A model generated the notes under the pieces. It did not search any database, was not told the DNA's origin, and was given only the letters and a program-made list of their open reading frames with translations. From NCBI GenBank assembly GCA_017848855.1, contig JAFIHF010000006.1, positions 1 to 33,443 of the forward strand: 33,443 bases of DNA. The letters are read 5' to 3'. Origin of the DNA: Rhodanobacter denitrificans (GTDB lineage: Bacteria; Pseudomonadota; Gammaproteobacteria; Xanthomonadales; Rhodanobacteraceae). Position numbers and translations under genes: made by a program. Below, piece by piece: positions 10,164-31,212 of this stretch. Position 1 is the first letter of the stretch. Each line of letters begins with the position of its first letter.

Positions 10164-10200
10164 GAGGTGACTCCGAGAGGGGGCTGAAGCGATGAGGTGG

Positions 10201-10217
10201 CCGGCTATTGTAGCCGG
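10201..10217 (-). promoter_or_regulatory. Candidate purD promoter inside a palindrome
   Basis: CCGGCTA-TTG-TAGCCGG (10201-10217) is a perfect inverted repeat. On the minus strand it contains TACAAT (10212-10207), a good -10 box about 44 bases before the purD ATG. No clear -35 at the standard spacing is seen. The palindrome could also be an operator; which protein would bind it is unknown. Confidence 0.4.
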
Positions 10218-10261
10218 CGCTGCGGATGGCCCGCCTTGGCAACGATATCGCTCGCATGAAA

Positions 10262-10940
10262 TGCAGTTTCGTGCGCCTGCCGCAAGGAACAGAGCGGTTT
10301 CGTGCCGCTGCCGCGGCCCGAGTTACTTCTCCTTTGCTTGTCCAAAGGAGAAGTAACCAAGAGGAAACGACACCCCGATGGCGCGCCCTCCAGGCATTCT
10401 GCCTTCCGGGTGCGCGGGCGGGTTACGGGGTTTTTCGACGGGACTCCTGTCCCGGCGAAAAACTGGCCCGCATCCGTGCGGGCCATCCTGCGGACTTTCC
10501 TCCACCCGCCCGCCGCGCCATAGGGGCCCCGGGTAGAGCAGCGCGCTCCCAGCGCGCAGAAGCAACGGCAAGAGCACCCCACCCCAGCCCTCCCCTGCGC
10601 GCAGGGGAGGGAGAGAACTCGCAAGTTTGCGGCGCTTCGCTCTTGCTCTTGCTTCTGGCGCGCACGATGCGCGCCTGCTCTTCCCGGGGCCCCTCGGCGG
10701 CGGTGAGCCGTGGACGACAAGGCCGCGCAGCGGGCATCGCCATGGAGGGCGATGCCTTTTCGACCGGGCAGGAAGCCCGGCCGAAAAGCCCGGCCACGGC
10801 TCACGGACTTTCCGTCCACGGACGGACGGAAAGCGCCGCCGCGGGGTGCCCTTTCTCTTTGGCTACTTTCTCTTTGGGCACGCAAAGAGAAAGTAGCTCG
10901 GGCGCCGGCAGGCGGCCGAAAGCCCGCCGCAGGCGAGCCC
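10262..10940 (+). repeat. Mirror-arm structured repeat, copy 1 (core 10317-10902)
   Basis: This non-coding stretch of about 650 bp fills most of the gap between purD and the AMP-ligase gene. The core is an inverted duplication: left arm 10317-10575, centre 10576-10638, right arm 10639-10902. Left arm order: hairpin A (10323-10356, TTACTTCTCCTTTG stem); stem D (10414-10423 with 10504-10513) enclosing hairpin B (10431-10462) and hairpin C (10465-10484); hairpin E (10541-10557). Right arm, read on the opposite strand: A (10863-10896), D (10703-10713 with 10794-10804) enclosing B (10757-10787) and C (10733-10756), E (10657-10675). Stems B-E differ between arms in most bases yet stay paired. Open frames on both strands here are low-complexity and unsupported. 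A second copy lies at 19990-20641 in the same orientation. I do not recognise it as a named element. Confidence 0.85.
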
Positions 10941-10966
10941 AACTACGGAAGTGAAAGATTCTCGCG

Positions 10967-11010
10967 AGCACCCGCCCCTCACCCCAGCCCTCTCCCCAAA
11001 GGGGAGAGGG
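10967..11010 (+). repeat. CCCTCTCCCC-type hairpin repeat with GCGAGCACCCGCCCC tail
   Basis: The hairpin CCCTCTCCCC-AAA-GGGGAGAGGG (10988-11010) follows CACCCGCCCCTCACCCCAG. The same unit in reverse orientation lies at 19902-19950, beside copy 2 of the structured repeat, so the unit accompanies both copies. It lies about 20 bases past the stop of the AMP-ligase gene, which reads on the minus strand, and might act in termination, although no T-run follows. Confidence 0.75.
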
Positions 11011-11030
11011 GGGCGCAAGGCCCCAGAGGC

Positions 11031-13111: not shown

Positions 13112-13154
13112 GGGGCGATGTTATGCCTGCGCCGATACGAGCCGCTGGGTTGGC

Positions 13155-13213
13155 GTAGGTCGGGCTTCAGCCCGACATGTGCGGCGCGGGTGTCGGGCTG
13201 AAGCCCGACCTAC
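13155..13213 (+). repeat. REP doublet (GTAGGTCGGGCTTCAGCCCGAC type)
   Basis: Two inverted units, GTAGGTCGGGCTTCAGCCCG onward (13155-13176) and GTCGGGCTGAAGCCCGAC plus CTAC (13192-13213), surround the centre ATGTGCGGCGCGGGT. Each unit is a hairpin by itself. It lies between topA and tsaC. The same family occurs at 29946-30002 and 31107-31212. Confidence 0.9.
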
Positions 13214-17041: not shown

Positions 17042-17145
17042 GCACGCCCGCAGGGCGCCCGCCAGGGTGGCGCACAGGGACGTGCGCCATGAAAACGGCG
17101 CGGGGTGAGCCGCGCCGTCGTGTCGGGCAATGCCCAGGTTTTCAC

Positions 17146-17222
17146 GTAGGAGCGCACCCTGTGCGCGAATGCTTTTGCTTCGATCAAGCGCCAGAGCATT
17201 CGCGCACAGGGTGCGCTCCTAC
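17146..17222 (+). repeat. REPIN-like inverted doublet (GTAGGAGCGCACCCTGTGCGCG type)
   Basis: The arms GTAGGAGCGCACCCTGTGCG onward (17146-17171) and GCATTCGCGCACAGGGTGCG onward to CTCCTAC (17196-17222) are almost perfect reverse complements around a spacer of about 25 bases. The copy at 8799-8866 has the same arms and a shorter centre. It begins 3 bases past the stop codon of the LysM gene (minus strand). Confidence 0.88.
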
Positions 17223-17225
17223 GAA

Positions 17226-18350
17226 TCATTCCGGCAGGCGCAGCACGTCGCCCTTCTTCACCGGGCGCAGGCCGTCCATCACCAGGCCGTAGCTGACATG
17301 ATCGAAAGTGCGGAACACCATCACGTGGCCGATGTATTCCTCCGGCAGGGTCACCCGCTGGCCCACGGCGCGGTCCCAGCTGTTGCTGGCCACGTCGTCG
17401 TGGATGGTGTCGCCGGGCTGCCAGATCGCGAAGGTGGTGCCGTTGTCGACGCCGTCGGCCTTGCCCACCGAGAGCGCCACCACCTGGTGCGGACCCACCG
17501 CGTCCATCGCGTCGGTGAACGCGATCACGCGGCCGTCCTTGGGCAGGCTCTGCGGCGCGTGCGGGTAGAAGTACGGGTCGTAGGGGTTGTCGTTCACCGG
17601 CAGGAGGCGGTCGCCGCTGCGGATTTCCTGGGTGGCGTCGGTCACCAACAGGGTGGACGGGTCGCCGGTGCGCAGCGTCTCGGCGCTGCCGATCACCTTC
17701 ACCTCGACGCCCATGTCGCGGCCGCGGCGGTACTGGCCGGAGCCGTTGTTGAAATCCTCTTCCCACGGCGACTTCACCATCGCCGCGTTGGCAAACAGCT
17801 CGTCGCCGAACACCGCGTTGCCGCCCTCGCCGTTGTCGTAGCCGCGGAACAGGTGCTCGGGCCGCACGATCGCCCAGCGCTGGCCGGGCTGGCTGTCGAG
17901 GCCGCGCACGTAGATGTTCTGGCCGGCGGTGACGCGCAGCTGGTTCTCTTCCACGCCCACCACGTAGGGCGCCTTGCTGACCGCGCTGGAATCCATCACG
18001 CGCAGGTCCTTCAGGAAGGTCTTGAGCGCATCCAGCGGGATCGCCGGCACCGCCTCGCCCTCGCGATGCACGGCCGGCTCCAGCTTCAGCGAGGGGCCGT
18101 TGATGAAGGACAGGTTGAGCACGTCGCCCGGGTAGATCAGGTGCGGGTTGCGCACCTGCGGGTTGGCCTGCCAGATCTCCGGCCACAGCCACGGCTTGGC
18201 GAGGAACTTGGCCGAGATGCCCCACAGCGTGTCGCCGCGGCGCACGGTGTAGGAATCGGGATGGTTGCTGCGCAGCTGCGCGGCACCGGCGGCGCACACC
18301 GCCGCCGCGACCATGGTGCCGGCCAGCACCGTGAAGGCTTTCTTGAACAT
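17226..18350 (-). CDS. Secreted LysM-domain peptidoglycan-binding protein
   Basis: A 374-residue exported protein. The N-terminus [20 protein letters not shown] is a Sec signal peptide with likely cleavage after AAGA (about residue 23). A LysM domain follows (about 33-81: [17 protein letters not shown], then [13 protein letters not shown]), which should bind peptidoglycan in the periplasm. The remaining 290 residues match, from general familiarity, the LysM proteins found next to dprA in many gammaproteobacteria; the function is not known in detail. The ATG at 18350 has AGGGGG about 9 bases upstream; the longer frame to 18911 runs antisense through def. It is divergent from def and ends 3 bases from a REPIN. 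Confidence 0.9.
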
Positions 18351-18983: not shown

Positions 18984-19933
18984 GCCTGCGCGTCGTCTTC
19001 GCCGGCACCCCGGAATTCGCCGTCCCCTGCCTCGAAGCCTGCCGCGCCAGCGGCGCCGAGGTGGTGGCCGTCTACACCCAGCCCGACCGCCCCGCCGGCC
19101 GCGGCCGCAAGCTCGCGCCCAGCCCGGTGAAGCAGGCCGCGCTCGCCGCCGGCATCGCGGTGGAGCAGCCCGAATCGCTGAAGGGCGCCGAGGCGCAGGC
19201 CCGGCTCGCCGCCTACCGCCCCGACCTGATGGTGGTGGTGGCCTACGGCCTGATCCTGCCGCGCAAGGTGCTGGCCATCCCGCGCCTGGGCTGCTGGAAC
19301 GTGCACGCCAGCCTCTTGCCGCGCTGGCGCGGCGCCGCGCCGATCCAGCGCGCCATCCTCGCCGGCGACGCCGAGACCGGCGTGGGCCTGATGCAGATGG
19401 AAGCGGGCCTGGACACCGGCCCGGTGCTGCTGGAACGACGCACCCCGATCACCCGCGACGACACCGGCGGCTCGCTGCACGACCGCCTCGCCGCGCTGGG
19501 CGCGGAAGCCCTGGCCGAAGGCCTGCGTCGCGTGCAGGCCGGCGAGACGCTGGTCGCCATACCGCAGGCGGACGCAGGCGTGGTCTACGCGCACAAGCTG
19601 GACAAGGCCGAGTCGGCGCTCGACTTCACCCGCTCCGCGATCGAACTGGAGCGCCAGGTGCGCGCGTTCGATCCGTGGCCGGGGAGCGACGCGGAGATCG
19701 CCGGTGAGCGGCTGAGGGTGTGGGGAGCGTTGGCGCTCGATCTTTCGCACGCTGCCACGCCGGGCAGCGTGGTTGGCGCTGGGCGCGAGGGTATCGACAT
19801 CGCCTGTGGGGAAGGGGTGCTGCGCGTCGTTTCTTTGCAGCGTGCGGGCGGACGACGCATCAGTGCCGCGGATTACCTCAATGCGCGGCCCGAGCTTCGC
19901 TCCCTCTCCCCTTCGGGGAGAGGGCTGGGGTGA
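18980..19933 (+). CDS. fmt: Methionyl-tRNA formyltransferase
   Basis: It formylates initiator Met-tRNA with 10-formyl-THF. It has 317 residues. The N-terminal [14 protein letters not shown] is at residues 5-18, and the active-site triad is N107 and H109 in [17 protein letters not shown] plus D145 in GLDTGPVL. The C-terminal OB-like domain runs from about 205. No ATG fits; TTG at 18980 overlaps the def stop (TTGA) and gives [13 protein letters not shown], matching other family starts. The last 10 codons ([10 protein letters not shown]) and the stop are read from a CCCTCTCCCC hairpin repeat, so the native end has been replaced by repeat sequence. The catalytic core is untouched. Confidence 0.96.
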
Positions 19934-19951
19934 GGGGCGGGTGCTCGCGAT
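19902..19951 (-). repeat. CCCTCTCCCC-type hairpin repeat that supplies the fmt C-terminus
   Basis: CCCTCTCCCC-TTC-GGGGAGAGGG (19902-19924) is followed by CTGGGGTGAGGGGCGGGTGC and TCGCGA. This is the reverse complement of the unit at 10967-11010. The fmt frame passes through the hairpin and uses the TGA in GGGGTGAGGGG as stop. It marks the left flank of copy 2 of the structured repeat. Confidence 0.85.
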
Positions 19952-19989: not shown

Positions 19990-20641
19990 GCGACAAAGCG
20001 GTTTCGTGCCGCTGCCGCAAGGAACAAAGCGGTTTCGAGCGCCTGCCGGCGCCCGAGTTACTTCTCCTTTGCTTGTCCAAAGGAGAAGTAACCAAGAGGA
20101 AACGACACCCCGATGGCGCGCCCTCCGGGCATCCTGCCCTGCGGGTACGCGGGCGGGTTCCGGGGTTTTTCGACGGGACTCCTGTCCCGGCGAAAAACTG
20201 GCCCGCATCCCTGCGGGCCATCCTGTCGGACTTTCCTCCACCCGCCCGCCGCGCCATAGGGGCTCCGGGTAAAGCAGCGCGCTCCAAGCGCGCACTCTTC
20301 AAAAGAGCAACAGCCCCGCAAGTTTGCGGCACCACGGCTTTTGCTCGCGCTCTTGCCTTGGCTTCTGGCGCGCACGATGCGCGCCTGCTCTTCCGGGGCC
20401 CCTCGGCGGCGGTGAGCCGTGGACGACAAGGCCGCGCAGCGGGCATCGCCATGGAGGGCGATGCCTTTTCGACCGGGCAGGAGGCCCGGCCGAAAAGCCC
20501 GGCCACGGCTCACGGACTCGCAGGGCAGGATGCCCGGAGAGCGTCGCCGCGGGGTGCCCTTTCTCTTTGGCTACTTTCTCTTTGGGCACGCAAAGAGAAA
20601 GTAGCTCGGGCGCCGGCAGGCGCTCGAAACCGCTCTGTCGC
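19990..20641 (+). repeat. Mirror-arm structured repeat, copy 2 (core 20052-20610)
   Basis: A second copy of the element at 10262-10940, in the same orientation, fills the fmt-rsmB gap. Terminal inverted repeats are clearest here: GCGACAAAGCGGTTTCG (19990-20006) against CGAAACCGCTCTGTCGC (20625-20641). A nearly perfect run of about 30 bases (GCGGTTTCGAGCGCCTGCCG and on to CCCGAG) also brackets the two A hairpins. Left arm: A 20058-20091, D 20149-20158 with 20240-20249, B 20166-20197, C 20200-20219. Right arm: A 20571-20604, D 20412-20422 with 20503-20513. A CCGGGCATCCTGCCCTGCG block is kept in both arms in this copy but lost from both arms of copy 1. Open frames through it lack support as genes. 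Confidence 0.87.
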
Positions 20642-20674
20642 TAACGACAAGCCACAAAGCCACCCCCATCCCAA

Positions 20675-30059: not shown

Positions 30060-31094
30060 ATGCCCAAGCACTACCTCCTCTACGGCTCCGAGCGTTACGC
30101 GCTGGCGATCCTGCGCCCGATCCAGGCGGCGATCCGCGCGCGCGGCGACGAGGCAGCATGGTTCTTCGACGGCCCCGGCGCGGAAGACCTGCACGCGGAC
30201 GAGCGCCTGCTGACGGTGCAGGAAGTGCGCGCGTGGAAGCCGCTGGCGGTGATCACCTCGTCGAATGCGGTGCCGCACTTCTTCCCCGGCGTGAAGGTGG
30301 AAACCTTCCACGGCTTCGATGCCGGCAAGCCGCGGCACATCTACGTGCGCGGCTTCTTCGATCTCTACTGCACCACCGGCCCGCGCGACACCGCACAGTT
30401 CCAGGCGATCGCCGACAAGGTGGGCCACTTCAGCGTGATCGAGACCGGCTTCCCCAAGATCGACCCGTTCATGCGCGAGCTGGGCGGCGCCATGCCGCCG
30501 GTGCGCACGCCGCCGGCGATCCTCTACCACAGCACCTTCTCGCCCTCGTGGAGCGCGGCGGAGACGCTGTACGAGGAGGTGAAGCGGCTATCGCGCGACG
30601 GCCGCTGGCGCTGGATCGTCAGCTTCCACCCGAAGATGAATCCGGAGACGGTGGCGAAGTTCAAGGCGCTGCAGAACGAGTACCTCACCTTCGCCGAGAA
30701 CGACAACATCCTGGAGCTGTTCGGCCAGGTCGACATGATGTGCTCGGACACCAGCTCCGCGCTCAACGAGTTCCTGCTCACCGGCAAGCCGGTGGTGACC
30801 TTCAACAACCGCCGCCCCGGTCCGCAGCTGATCGACATCCACGACGCCAGGGATTTCGAGCCGGCGATCGAGCGCGCACTCTCCCGCCCGCCGGAGCTGA
30901 TGGCCGCGATCCGCGCCTACGCCGATGCGATCCACCCCTACCGCGACGGCCGCTCCAGCGAGCGCGTGCTGGACGCGATCGACACCTTCGTCGCGAAGGG
31001 CGGCAAGAACCGCAAGCCCAAGCCGTGGAACCTGTGGCGCAAGCTGAAGATCCGCCGCCGCATCGGCTATTGGGGCCCCGCGCGCTGGCGCTGA
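30060..31094 (+). CDS. TagB/TagF-like CDP-glycerol (polyol) phosphotransferase
   Basis: A 344-residue protein resembling the CDP-glycerol glycerophosphotransferase family (GT-B fold), best known from teichoic acid synthesis and also found in some Gram-negative capsule and O-antigen clusters. Motifs seen are VETFHGFD (80-87, the counterpart of the TagF HG loop), the basic SFHPKMNPE (188-196) and the donor loop CSDTSSALNEFLLTGKPV (228-245). The C-terminus is strongly basic (KNRKPKPWNLWRKLKIRRR), suited to membrane-surface binding. The ATG at 30060 has no good ribosome site. The substrate is inferred only from the family. Confidence 0.75.
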   Translation: MPKHYLLYGSERYALAILRPIQAAIRARGDEAAWFFDGPGAEDLHADERLLTVQEVRAWKPLAVITSSNAVPHFFPGVKVETFHGFDAGKPRHIYVRGFFDLYCTTGPRDTAQFQAIADKVGHFSVIETGFPKIDPFMRELGGAMPPVRTPPAILYHSTFSPSWSAAETLYEEVKRLSRDGRWRWIVSFHPKMNPETVAKFKALQNEYLTFAENDNILELFGQVDMMCSDTSSALNEFLLTGKPVVTFNNRRPGPQLIDIHDARDFEPAIERALSRPPELMAAIRAYADAIHPYRDGRSSERVLDAIDTFVAKGGKNRKPKPWNLWRKLKIRRRIGYWGPARWR

Positions 31095-31106
31095 ACCGTG
31101 GGTCGG

Positions 31107-31212
31107 GCGTAGGTCGGGCTTCAGCCCGACATCCCGCCCTGAATCGTGGGTCGGGCTTCAGCCCGACGCGTGCGGGATGTCGGGATGAATCCCGACCTAC
31201 AAGCCCGACCTG
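31107..31212 (+). repeat. Cluster of REP units (GTCGGGCTTCAGCCCGAC type)
   Basis: Four related units lie in the gap of about 160 bp after the TagB-like gene: GTAGGTCGGGCTTCAGCCCG onward (31109-31130), a direct copy GGTCGGGCTTCAGCCCGAC (31149-31167), an inverted GTCGGGATGAATCCCGAC plus CTAC (31179-31200), and a half unit AGCCCGACCTGCG (31202-31214). GTCGGGCG just before the first unit may be another fragment. Three or more units in a row, rather than a clean doublet, suggest repeated insertion or slippage. Confidence 0.85.

What the first reader, a model, noticed from the sequence alone, without database searches (positions are those of the whole stretch)
10262..10940. Large mirror-arm structured repeat of unknown type (copy 1)
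The core 10317-10902 is an inverted duplication with 259- and 264-base arms around a 63-base centre. Both arms carry the same order of structures: hairpin A, stem D enclosing hairpins B and C, hairpin E. This is neither a simple palindrome nor a REPIN, and no coding region explains it. It could be a non-autonomous transposable foldback element, a large structured RNA readable from either strand, or a chromosome-organising site. I do not recognise it as a described family.
Basis: seen in the sequence. Interest (0 to 1): 0.88.

Follow-up and report, generated by a model that had tools for sequence, protein, structure and literature searches.

The report
Paired triple-helix repeat between bacterial genes
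A long non-coding DNA element, present dozens of times in this Rhodanobacter genome and in related form in many other bacteria, ends at each side in a sequence built to fold into a knotted three-stranded helix; what it does is not known.

Summary
In detail: 10317-10902 has 259- and 264-base inverted arms round a 63-base centre. It belongs to a large family: 137 end modules in this 3.49 Mb genome, probably a Rhodanobacter.

Each outer end is a 55-nt module that should fold as an H-type pseudoknot whose first loop lies as a pyrimidine third strand on stem P2. Support: pseudoknot stem P1 in 155 of 171 modules, 47 by permutation; third strand A→T 1099/1125, G→C 286/301, T→G 10/12. Modules sit head-to-head (77 of 82 close pairs). 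Arms carry GGA-loop hairpins on one strand: 528 of 798 loops, TCC 11.

Nearest known: BoxC/PIT intrastrand-triplex repeats, and Rfam TwoAYGGAY RNA, which matches arms of some relatives but not this genome. My ten paper searches found no description of the combination. One site inside an operon is empty in sister species. Neither CsrA nor a Y1 transposase is required. I favour a mobile-type repeat acting through its folded GGA strand at gene 3' ends. The fold is well supported; RNA level and function are inferred.

The parts
10263..10314 (.). outer repeat, two 31-base units, left side
   Evidence: direct repeat D1; a solitary unit stands at an otherwise empty site in G008 and G009
10322..10376 (-). 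left end module: pseudoknotted triplex; P2 10322-10336/10343-10357, third strand about 10360-10368
   Evidence: R1 match C6:10322-10376:-; covariation
10373..10526 (-). left (alpha) arm body, closing stem 10373-10385/10514-10526
   Evidence: inverted repeat I13; alpha type by reading
10430..10463 (-). hairpin B of left arm, AGGA loop on - strand
   Evidence: I9; loop statistics
10464..10485 (-). hairpin C of left arm, ACGGAT loop on - strand, followed by GTTTTT (terminator-like)
10541..10557 (.). hairpin E of left arm
   Evidence: sequence
10577..10611 (-). BoxC-like intrastrand triplex motif in the centre
10658..10676 (.). hairpin E of right arm
   Evidence: sequence
10690..10846 (+). right (beta) arm body, closing stem 10690-10702/10834-10846
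   Evidence: I15; beta type by reading
10733..10756 (+). hairpin C of right arm, ATGGAG loop, followed by TTTTC
10756..10788 (+). hairpin B of right arm, AGGAA loop
   Evidence: I12
10808..10833 (+). outermost GGA hairpin of right arm (loop ACGGAC)
   Evidence: I22
10843..10897 (+). right end module: pseudoknotted triplex; P2 10862-10876/10883-10897
   Evidence: R1 match C6:10843-10897:+
10976..11010 (-). BoxC-like motif just outside copy 1
19995..20649 (.). copy 2, between fmt and rsmB; modules 20057-20111 (-) and 20551-20605 (+)
19902..19936 (+). BoxC-like motif beside copy 2

Best explanation
It is a dispersed, non-coding, mobile-type repeat. Its constant core is two head-to-head 55-nt modules that fold, in the strand running from the centre outwards, into an H-type pseudoknot with a pyrimidine-motif triple helix: P1 TGNC/GNCA or longer; P2 about 14 bp; loop 1 laid parallel along the purine strand of P2. 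In the Xanthomonadales loci examined the arms between centre and module are TwoAYGGAY-like, with several A(N)GGA hairpins. Because the modules face outwards, a transcript entering from either side contains one complete arm and module in the folding sense. SHOWN by sequence: copies, layout, covariation, strand bias of the GGA loops, bias against divergent gene pairs, occupied and empty site. INFERRED: the folded strand is used as RNA at gene 3' ends, where the arm ends transcription or the knot blocks 3'-to-5' decay. INFERRED and weaker: the folded strand is also what the unknown mobilising machinery recognises.
For: Third-strand code over 182 unique modules: A→T 1099/1125, G→C 286/301, T→G 10/12; seven of the T→G cases are internal, from four families. 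145 of 182 modules have >=8 canonical triples, permutation mean 48, max 61 of 200. An earlier test on 152 unique modules scored 1249 against 1004 with SD 11, max 1037 of 300. P1 of >=4 bp in 155 of 171 unique modules, permutation mean 47, max 61 of 500. Head-to-head order in 77 of 82 adjacent pairs. GGA in 528 of 798 arm hairpin loops, TCC in 11; flanking control 38 and 45 of 520. GGA hairpin followed by T>=4 on the GGA strand in 43 of 61 own arms, 0 on the other strand. Five terminator-like sites in 10200-11030, 1.1 expected. Elements avoid divergent gene pairs: 10 of 119 called against 56 of 276, p=0.003. The fmt-rsmB junction is occupied in G000, G001 and G005 and empty in same-genus G002, G003, G004, G013 and G014. 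R1 matches, own genome included, in 58 of 99 relatives, 85 of 369 genomes of the class and 73 of 398 of the phylum.
Against: No expression data were available. No sigma-70-like promoter found. The G.U excess in P2 (36 against 7 A.C) comes mostly from one position (30 modules); without it the rows listed add up to 15 and 7. In the arm hairpins G.U (9) is not more common than A.C (18), so RNA over DNA is not proven. Arms in other families of the class rarely have the T-run (3 of 60). Termination at hairpin C would stop before the triplex is transcribed. Many P2 purine cores are mirror-symmetric, so a backward reading of the third strand also reaches the threshold in 93 of 182 modules. Permutations do not correct for relatedness. 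No target-site duplication and no mobilising enzyme were found. The gene caller was rough (33 of 152 sites uncalled).
Confidence: 0.5

Rival explanations
1. It acts as DNA: the modules form intrastrand triplexes when strands separate, stall replication and provoke deletions, as proposed for BoxC/TM_ECO.
For: Same layout as BoxC. A BoxC-like motif lies in the centre or within 300 nt of 21 of 23 own elements but once in 49.9 kb elsewhere. Sites differ between sister species. G.U evidence for RNA is weak.
Against: GGA loops are strongly strand-asymmetric. P1 gives a pseudoknot; the BoxC paper's text holds no mention of one. Bias to gene 3' sides.
Confidence: 0.25
2. It is a reservoir of CsrA/RsmA binding sites: transcribed arms sequester the regulator through A(N)GGA loops.
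For: Loop sequence and strand bias. Rfam gives TwoAYGGAY and RsmY the same clan label, CL00106. GGA loops 47 of 105 hairpins in 35 CsrA+ genomes against 7 of 34 in 9 CsrA- genomes, p=0.015, not corrected for relatedness; 6 genomes of unknown CsrA status (12 of 20) left out.
Against: Ten of 85 element-bearing genomes have no CsrA match, against 46 of 284 without the element, p=0.39 (the ten confirmed). Nine f118 genomes with modules, all rated 100% complete, lack CsrA. 16 of 35 CsrA+ genomes examined show no GGA hairpin, 4 of them with no hairpin parsed at all.
Confidence: 0.15
3. A REP/REPIN-like repeat moved by a RAYT (Y1) transposase.
For: Dispersed and intergenic; P2 often ends GTAG, followed by another hairpin.
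Against: Y1_Tnp has no match in G003, G004, G005, G011, G041, G048 and G053, which have 17 to 57 modules listed. GTAG is not conserved: GTAAC, GGAAC and GTCAC occur.
Confidence: 0.04

Closest known systems
BoxC / PIT elements / TM_ECO intrastrand triplex repeats (PMC4666352; abstract, parts 1-5 of 10, discussion part 1 of 2, and search passages read)
   Same: Pyrimidine-purine-purine order on one strand (class II) and pyrimidine-motif class IV on the other; intergenic; in E. coli MG1655 five inverted pairs, each one type A with one type B.
   Different: Sequence here is A/T-richer; it has a covarying pseudoknot stem P1 and a third strand that follows the pyrimidine-motif code; spacing 331-629 nt in 70 of 77 pairs against about 30 nt in the two E. 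coli pairs I looked at; long structured arms.
TwoAYGGAY RNA, Rfam RF01731 (only its table row in PMC2864571 seen)
   Same: Arms of some relatives match at gathering score, 2 to 44 nt 5' of a module (L197, L198, L203, L288); hairpins with GGA loops.
   Different: No match in own genome; matches in G025, G062, G065, G075 and G090 have no triplex cap that my finder or eye detected; that Rfam's model covers no head-to-head pair follows from its 168-nt length.
Triplex pseudoknots of telomerase RNA, SAM-V and guanidine-III riboswitches (passages in PMC4689454; abstract openings in the listing)
   Same: H-type pseudoknot with a third strand on a stem.
   Different: Not a riboswitch or telomerase; a dispersed repeat in genomes.
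REP / BIME / REPIN (PMC3733652, passages only)
   Same: High-copy intergenic palindromes.
   Different: More than ten times longer than a 20-40 bp REP; no conserved GTAG; no RAYT needed.

Membership tests
BoxC / PIT (TM_ECO) | consensus CCCTCNCCC N3-6 GGGNGAGGG N3 GGGNGAGGG | tested here: not met
   The end modules have a different sequence. A BoxC-like motif is a separate part at 10577-10611 (a looser pattern of my own).
BoxC / PIT (TM_ECO) | three-domain intrastrand triplex layout | tested here: met
   by sequence:
BoxC / PIT (TM_ECO) | inverted pairs of two different types | tested here: met
   77 of 82 close pairs head-to-head; arm identity within an element at most 0.88 in 103 pairs; 24 of 28 own elements alpha-beta
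TwoAYGGAY RF01731 | match at Rfam gathering score | tested here: not met
   Window: none. Own genome: none at E<=0.01, 25 of 217 candidates scored. Met in 4 of 30 loci of relatives: L197, L198, L203, L288.
TwoAYGGAY RF01731 | hairpins with A-Y-GGA-Y loops | tested here: inconclusive
   GGA in 138 of 192 own hairpin loops; the strict AYGGAY form was not counted
REP/REPIN | RAYT transposase in the genome | tested here: not met
   Y1_Tnp absent from seven module-rich genomes
MITE / IS-derived | target-site duplication at the ends | tested here: inconclusive
   Flanks of available relatives too diverged
CsrA-binding RNA | binding of CsrA/RsmA | not testable with these tools
   needs a binding assay

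The most novel reading that the evidence does not exclude
A widespread class of bacterial RNA whose 3' part is a knotted triple helix of 8-9 base triples, spread through genomes in outward-facing pairs so that transcription from either side yields the same protected RNA end: a bacterial counterpart of the triple helices that guard some viral and nuclear RNAs (that comparison is recalled).
Probability: 0.3. Interest if true: 0.92.

Novelty: new variant of a known kind. Interest (0 to 1): 0.74.

Why it matters
Base triples are rarely visible as covariation. Here a third strand tracks the duplex across many bacterial families, including G opposite inverted T-A pairs. It gives a ready test set for natural triplexes, links two unexplained repeats (BoxC and TwoAYGGAY) in one element, and offers a natural comparison (families with and without CsrA) to ask what the GGA hairpins do.

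Tried and rejected
Coding: three ORFs across the element give no Pfam or NCBIfam match at E<=0.1. Rfam on the window: only sub-threshold matches. Plasmids and phages: no blastn match to the element at E<=1e-5. RAYT as helper: rejected as necessary. CsrA as necessary partner: rejected. Clean empty site for copy 1 upstream of purD: not clean; G007 has an arm relic there that my pattern missed. Target-site duplication: not resolved. Own-genome unpaired modules (65 of 137) often lie at contig ends, so they are no proof of solo copies; I did not count how many. One search looked for perfect 8-of-8 class-IV triplexes in L309-L327 (L308 was left out by the script) and found them only in the three G053 loci; it is strict, and by eye the two G070 loci also show a module after the TwoAYGGAY match. 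One search counted 1 GGA loop in 18 f118 hairpins on a smaller set. G374's first 20 kb (L297) gave no module. Paper searches found no description of this composite element; most subscription papers are not held. Ideas not followed: chromosome organisation, frameshifting, cargo capture.

Full report
OBSERVATION. Window 10317-10902 is an inverted duplication as described, with very stable folds on both strands. A second copy lies at 19995-20649. The window is contig C6 of a 3.49 Mb draft genome. G001, listed as the same genus, has a contig whose module positions equal those of a Rhodanobacter sp. PCA2 record (L182), and another contig of the same length as a second PCA2 record, so I infer Rhodanobacter. 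BLAST with the element gave 117 matches (40 of 252 candidates scored).

THE END MODULE. Reading each arm from the centre outwards, the last 55 nt read GGGGTG-NN-C/G, a pyrimidine run, GG, then a 15-bp hairpin. The hairpin loop complements the TGNC just before the pyrimidine run, and the run itself matches the purine strand of the hairpin in parallel, as in a pyrimidine-motif triple helix. I built a covariance model, R1, from 11 own modules with only the hairpin paired. It finds 137 modules at E<=0.01 in the own genome (150 of 1028 candidates scored), and at E<=0.001, own genome included, matches in 58 of 99 relatives, 85 of 369 genomes of the class and 73 of 398 of the phylum, 32 of these from one family outside the class, many of them weak. 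These three searches scored 57, 15 and 14 candidates per genome, so counts per genome are lower bounds.

COVARIATION. Alignments hold 114 matches, 150 of 178, 116, 32 and 59; partial or long matches were dropped by length. Test 1: 274 modules parsed of 316, 42 skipped, 152 unique; total parallel match 1249 against 1004 (SD 11, max 1037 of 300 permutations). Test 2: P1 of at least 4 bp in 155 of 171 unique modules, permutation mean 47, max 61 of 500. Test 3: 366 records, 5 unparsed, 182 unique; opposite A the third strand has T in 1099 of 1125 cells, opposite G it has C in 286 of 301, opposite T it has G in 10 of 12 (against 23 of 1444 elsewhere); the 18 C cells (13 C, 4 T, 1 G) follow no clear rule and by eye are mostly parse edges. 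Seven of the T cases are inside the run (L197, L198, L203, L204, L205, L211, L289; genomes of four families), three are at its edges, two miss. The register was chosen for best fit, which favours A-T and G-C but not T-G. G facing an inverted T-A pair is the preferred pyrimidine-motif triple (recalled). At least 8 canonical triples occur in 145 of 182 modules, in 48 on average after permutation (max 61 of 200), and in 93 when the third strand is read backwards, because many cores are mirror-symmetric. Permutations do not correct for relatedness.

ARMS. On the same strand, 528 of 798 hairpin loops in 270 unique arms contain GGA and 11 contain TCC; in flanking DNA 38 and 45 of 520 (the control may hold some element DNA). 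By group, GGA of all hairpins: own genome 138 of 192, genus to order 100 of 131, named genomes 285 of 451, other families of the class 49 of 104. The same loop occurs on many stems, for example TGGA on 31. In own arms a GGA hairpin is followed by four or more T on this strand in 43 of 61 arms and in none on the other; genus to order 25 and 3 of 45, named genomes 63 and 4 of 142, other families 3 and 0 of 60.

LAYOUT. Of 82 neighbouring module pairs closer than 1.5 kb, 77 are head-to-head, 70 of them 331-629 nt apart. In 103 such pairs the two arms of one element are at most 88% alike. Own alpha arms of different elements average 94%, beta arms 88%, alpha with beta 82%, and the two arms of one element 81% (the first three from sampled pairs). 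Long perfect palindromes are unstable in bacteria (established knowledge), which may explain the unlike arms. A BoxC-like motif lies in the centre (16) or within 300 nt (13) of 21 of 23 own elements, but once in 49.9 kb farther off.

CONTEXT AND MOBILITY. With a rough GC3 gene caller, elements lie between codirectional 70, convergent 39 and divergent 10 gene pairs (119 called, 33 uncalled; sites nearer than 400 nt to a locus end were not tried), against 166, 54 and 56 of 276 neighbouring pairs in the named loci (Fisher p=0.003 for divergent). Copy 2 splits the fmt-rsmB pair. Of 30 loci examined, that junction holds elements in G000, G001 and G005; an arm remnant next to a likely toxin-antitoxin pair in G010 (judged by eye); BoxC-like pieces of 181 and 136 nt in G011 and G006; 10 nt in G007; a lone outer repeat in G008 and G009; and nothing in same-genus G002, G003, G004, G013 and G014. 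G012 could not be judged. Copy 1 was found by pattern only in the own genome among 30 purD loci, but G007 has a relic.

KNOWN RELATIVES. Holder et al. 2015 (PMC4666352; read parts 1-5 of 10, discussion part 1 of 2 and search passages) describe BoxC/PIT/TM_ECO, whose layout is the same. Their database, by its stated limits, may list our modules as single hits; the main text has no hit for Xanthomona, Lysobacter or pseudoknot. Rfam TwoAYGGAY matches arms at gathering score in L197 and in L198, L203 and L288, 4 of 30 loci scanned in those two calls. In the own genome it has no match at E<=0.01; 9 of 99 genomes have one, 6 over the cut-off. In G053 three TwoAYGGAY hits are followed by the triplex module, and by eye two in G070, a bridge between the two; in G025, G062, G065, G075 and G090 I saw none. 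The 2010 paper that lists it (PMC2864571, table row only) rates it probably RNA, probably not cis-regulatory.

CsrA. The loops look like CsrA/RsmA sites (recalled) and Rfam gives TwoAYGGAY and RsmY one clan label. But CsrA presence is not associated with the element (75 of 85 against 238 of 284, p=0.39, with the ten negatives confirmed). Family f118 is a natural experiment: the 9 genomes with modules that I tested, all rated 100% complete, lack CsrA yet keep head-to-head pairs, and GGA loops fall to 3 of 29 hairpins in the six examined. Over all, 47 of 105 hairpins in 35 CsrA+ genomes against 7 of 34 in 9 CsrA- genomes (p=0.015); 6 genomes of unknown status (12 of 20) were left out, three of the CsrA- genomes are drafts that may lack the gene by incompleteness, and 16 of the 35 CsrA+ genomes show no GGA hairpin (4 had no hairpin parsed), so lineage alone may explain it. 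The triplex pair, not the GGA arm, is the constant core.

RNA OR DNA. Non-standard pairs in P2 on the GGA strand are G.U 36, A.C 7, but 30 modules share one position; arm hairpins show 9 G.U and 18 A.C. The GGA loops and T-runs point to one strand; the molecule is not settled.

VERDICT. A real, widespread element: a new variant that joins two known kinds of unexplained repeat, with unusually clear sequence evidence for a natural triple helix. Function remains open; I favour action of the folded GGA strand at gene 3' ends.

Noticed in passing
13139-13178 and 31093-31132: Two copies of a repeat with GTAGGTCGGGCTTCAGCCCGAC, which looks like a GTAG-type REP (recalled).
   Followed up: no
17142-17227: A long hairpin that several microRNA models score below their cut-offs.
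   Followed up: no
L223 (G010), fmt-rsmB junction: A likely antitoxin and PIN-type toxin pair sits beside an alpha-arm remnant, possible cargo or a later insertion (judged by eye).
   Followed up: no
own genome contig ends, e.g. C42, C66, C69, C70 at 58-112: Several contigs start or end at the element: the repeat seems to break assemblies.
   Followed up: partly
L009, L016, L019, L024: A variant module has about 65 extra bases inserted in the P2 loop, with hairpins of its own.
   Followed up: no
L103, L204: Modules in direct or clustered arrays: three in one direction; five in 1.7 kb.
   Followed up: no
L228 centre: Another inverted repeat (GTCATTCCTGCGAAAGCAGG...) is nested in the centre of an element.
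   Followed up: no
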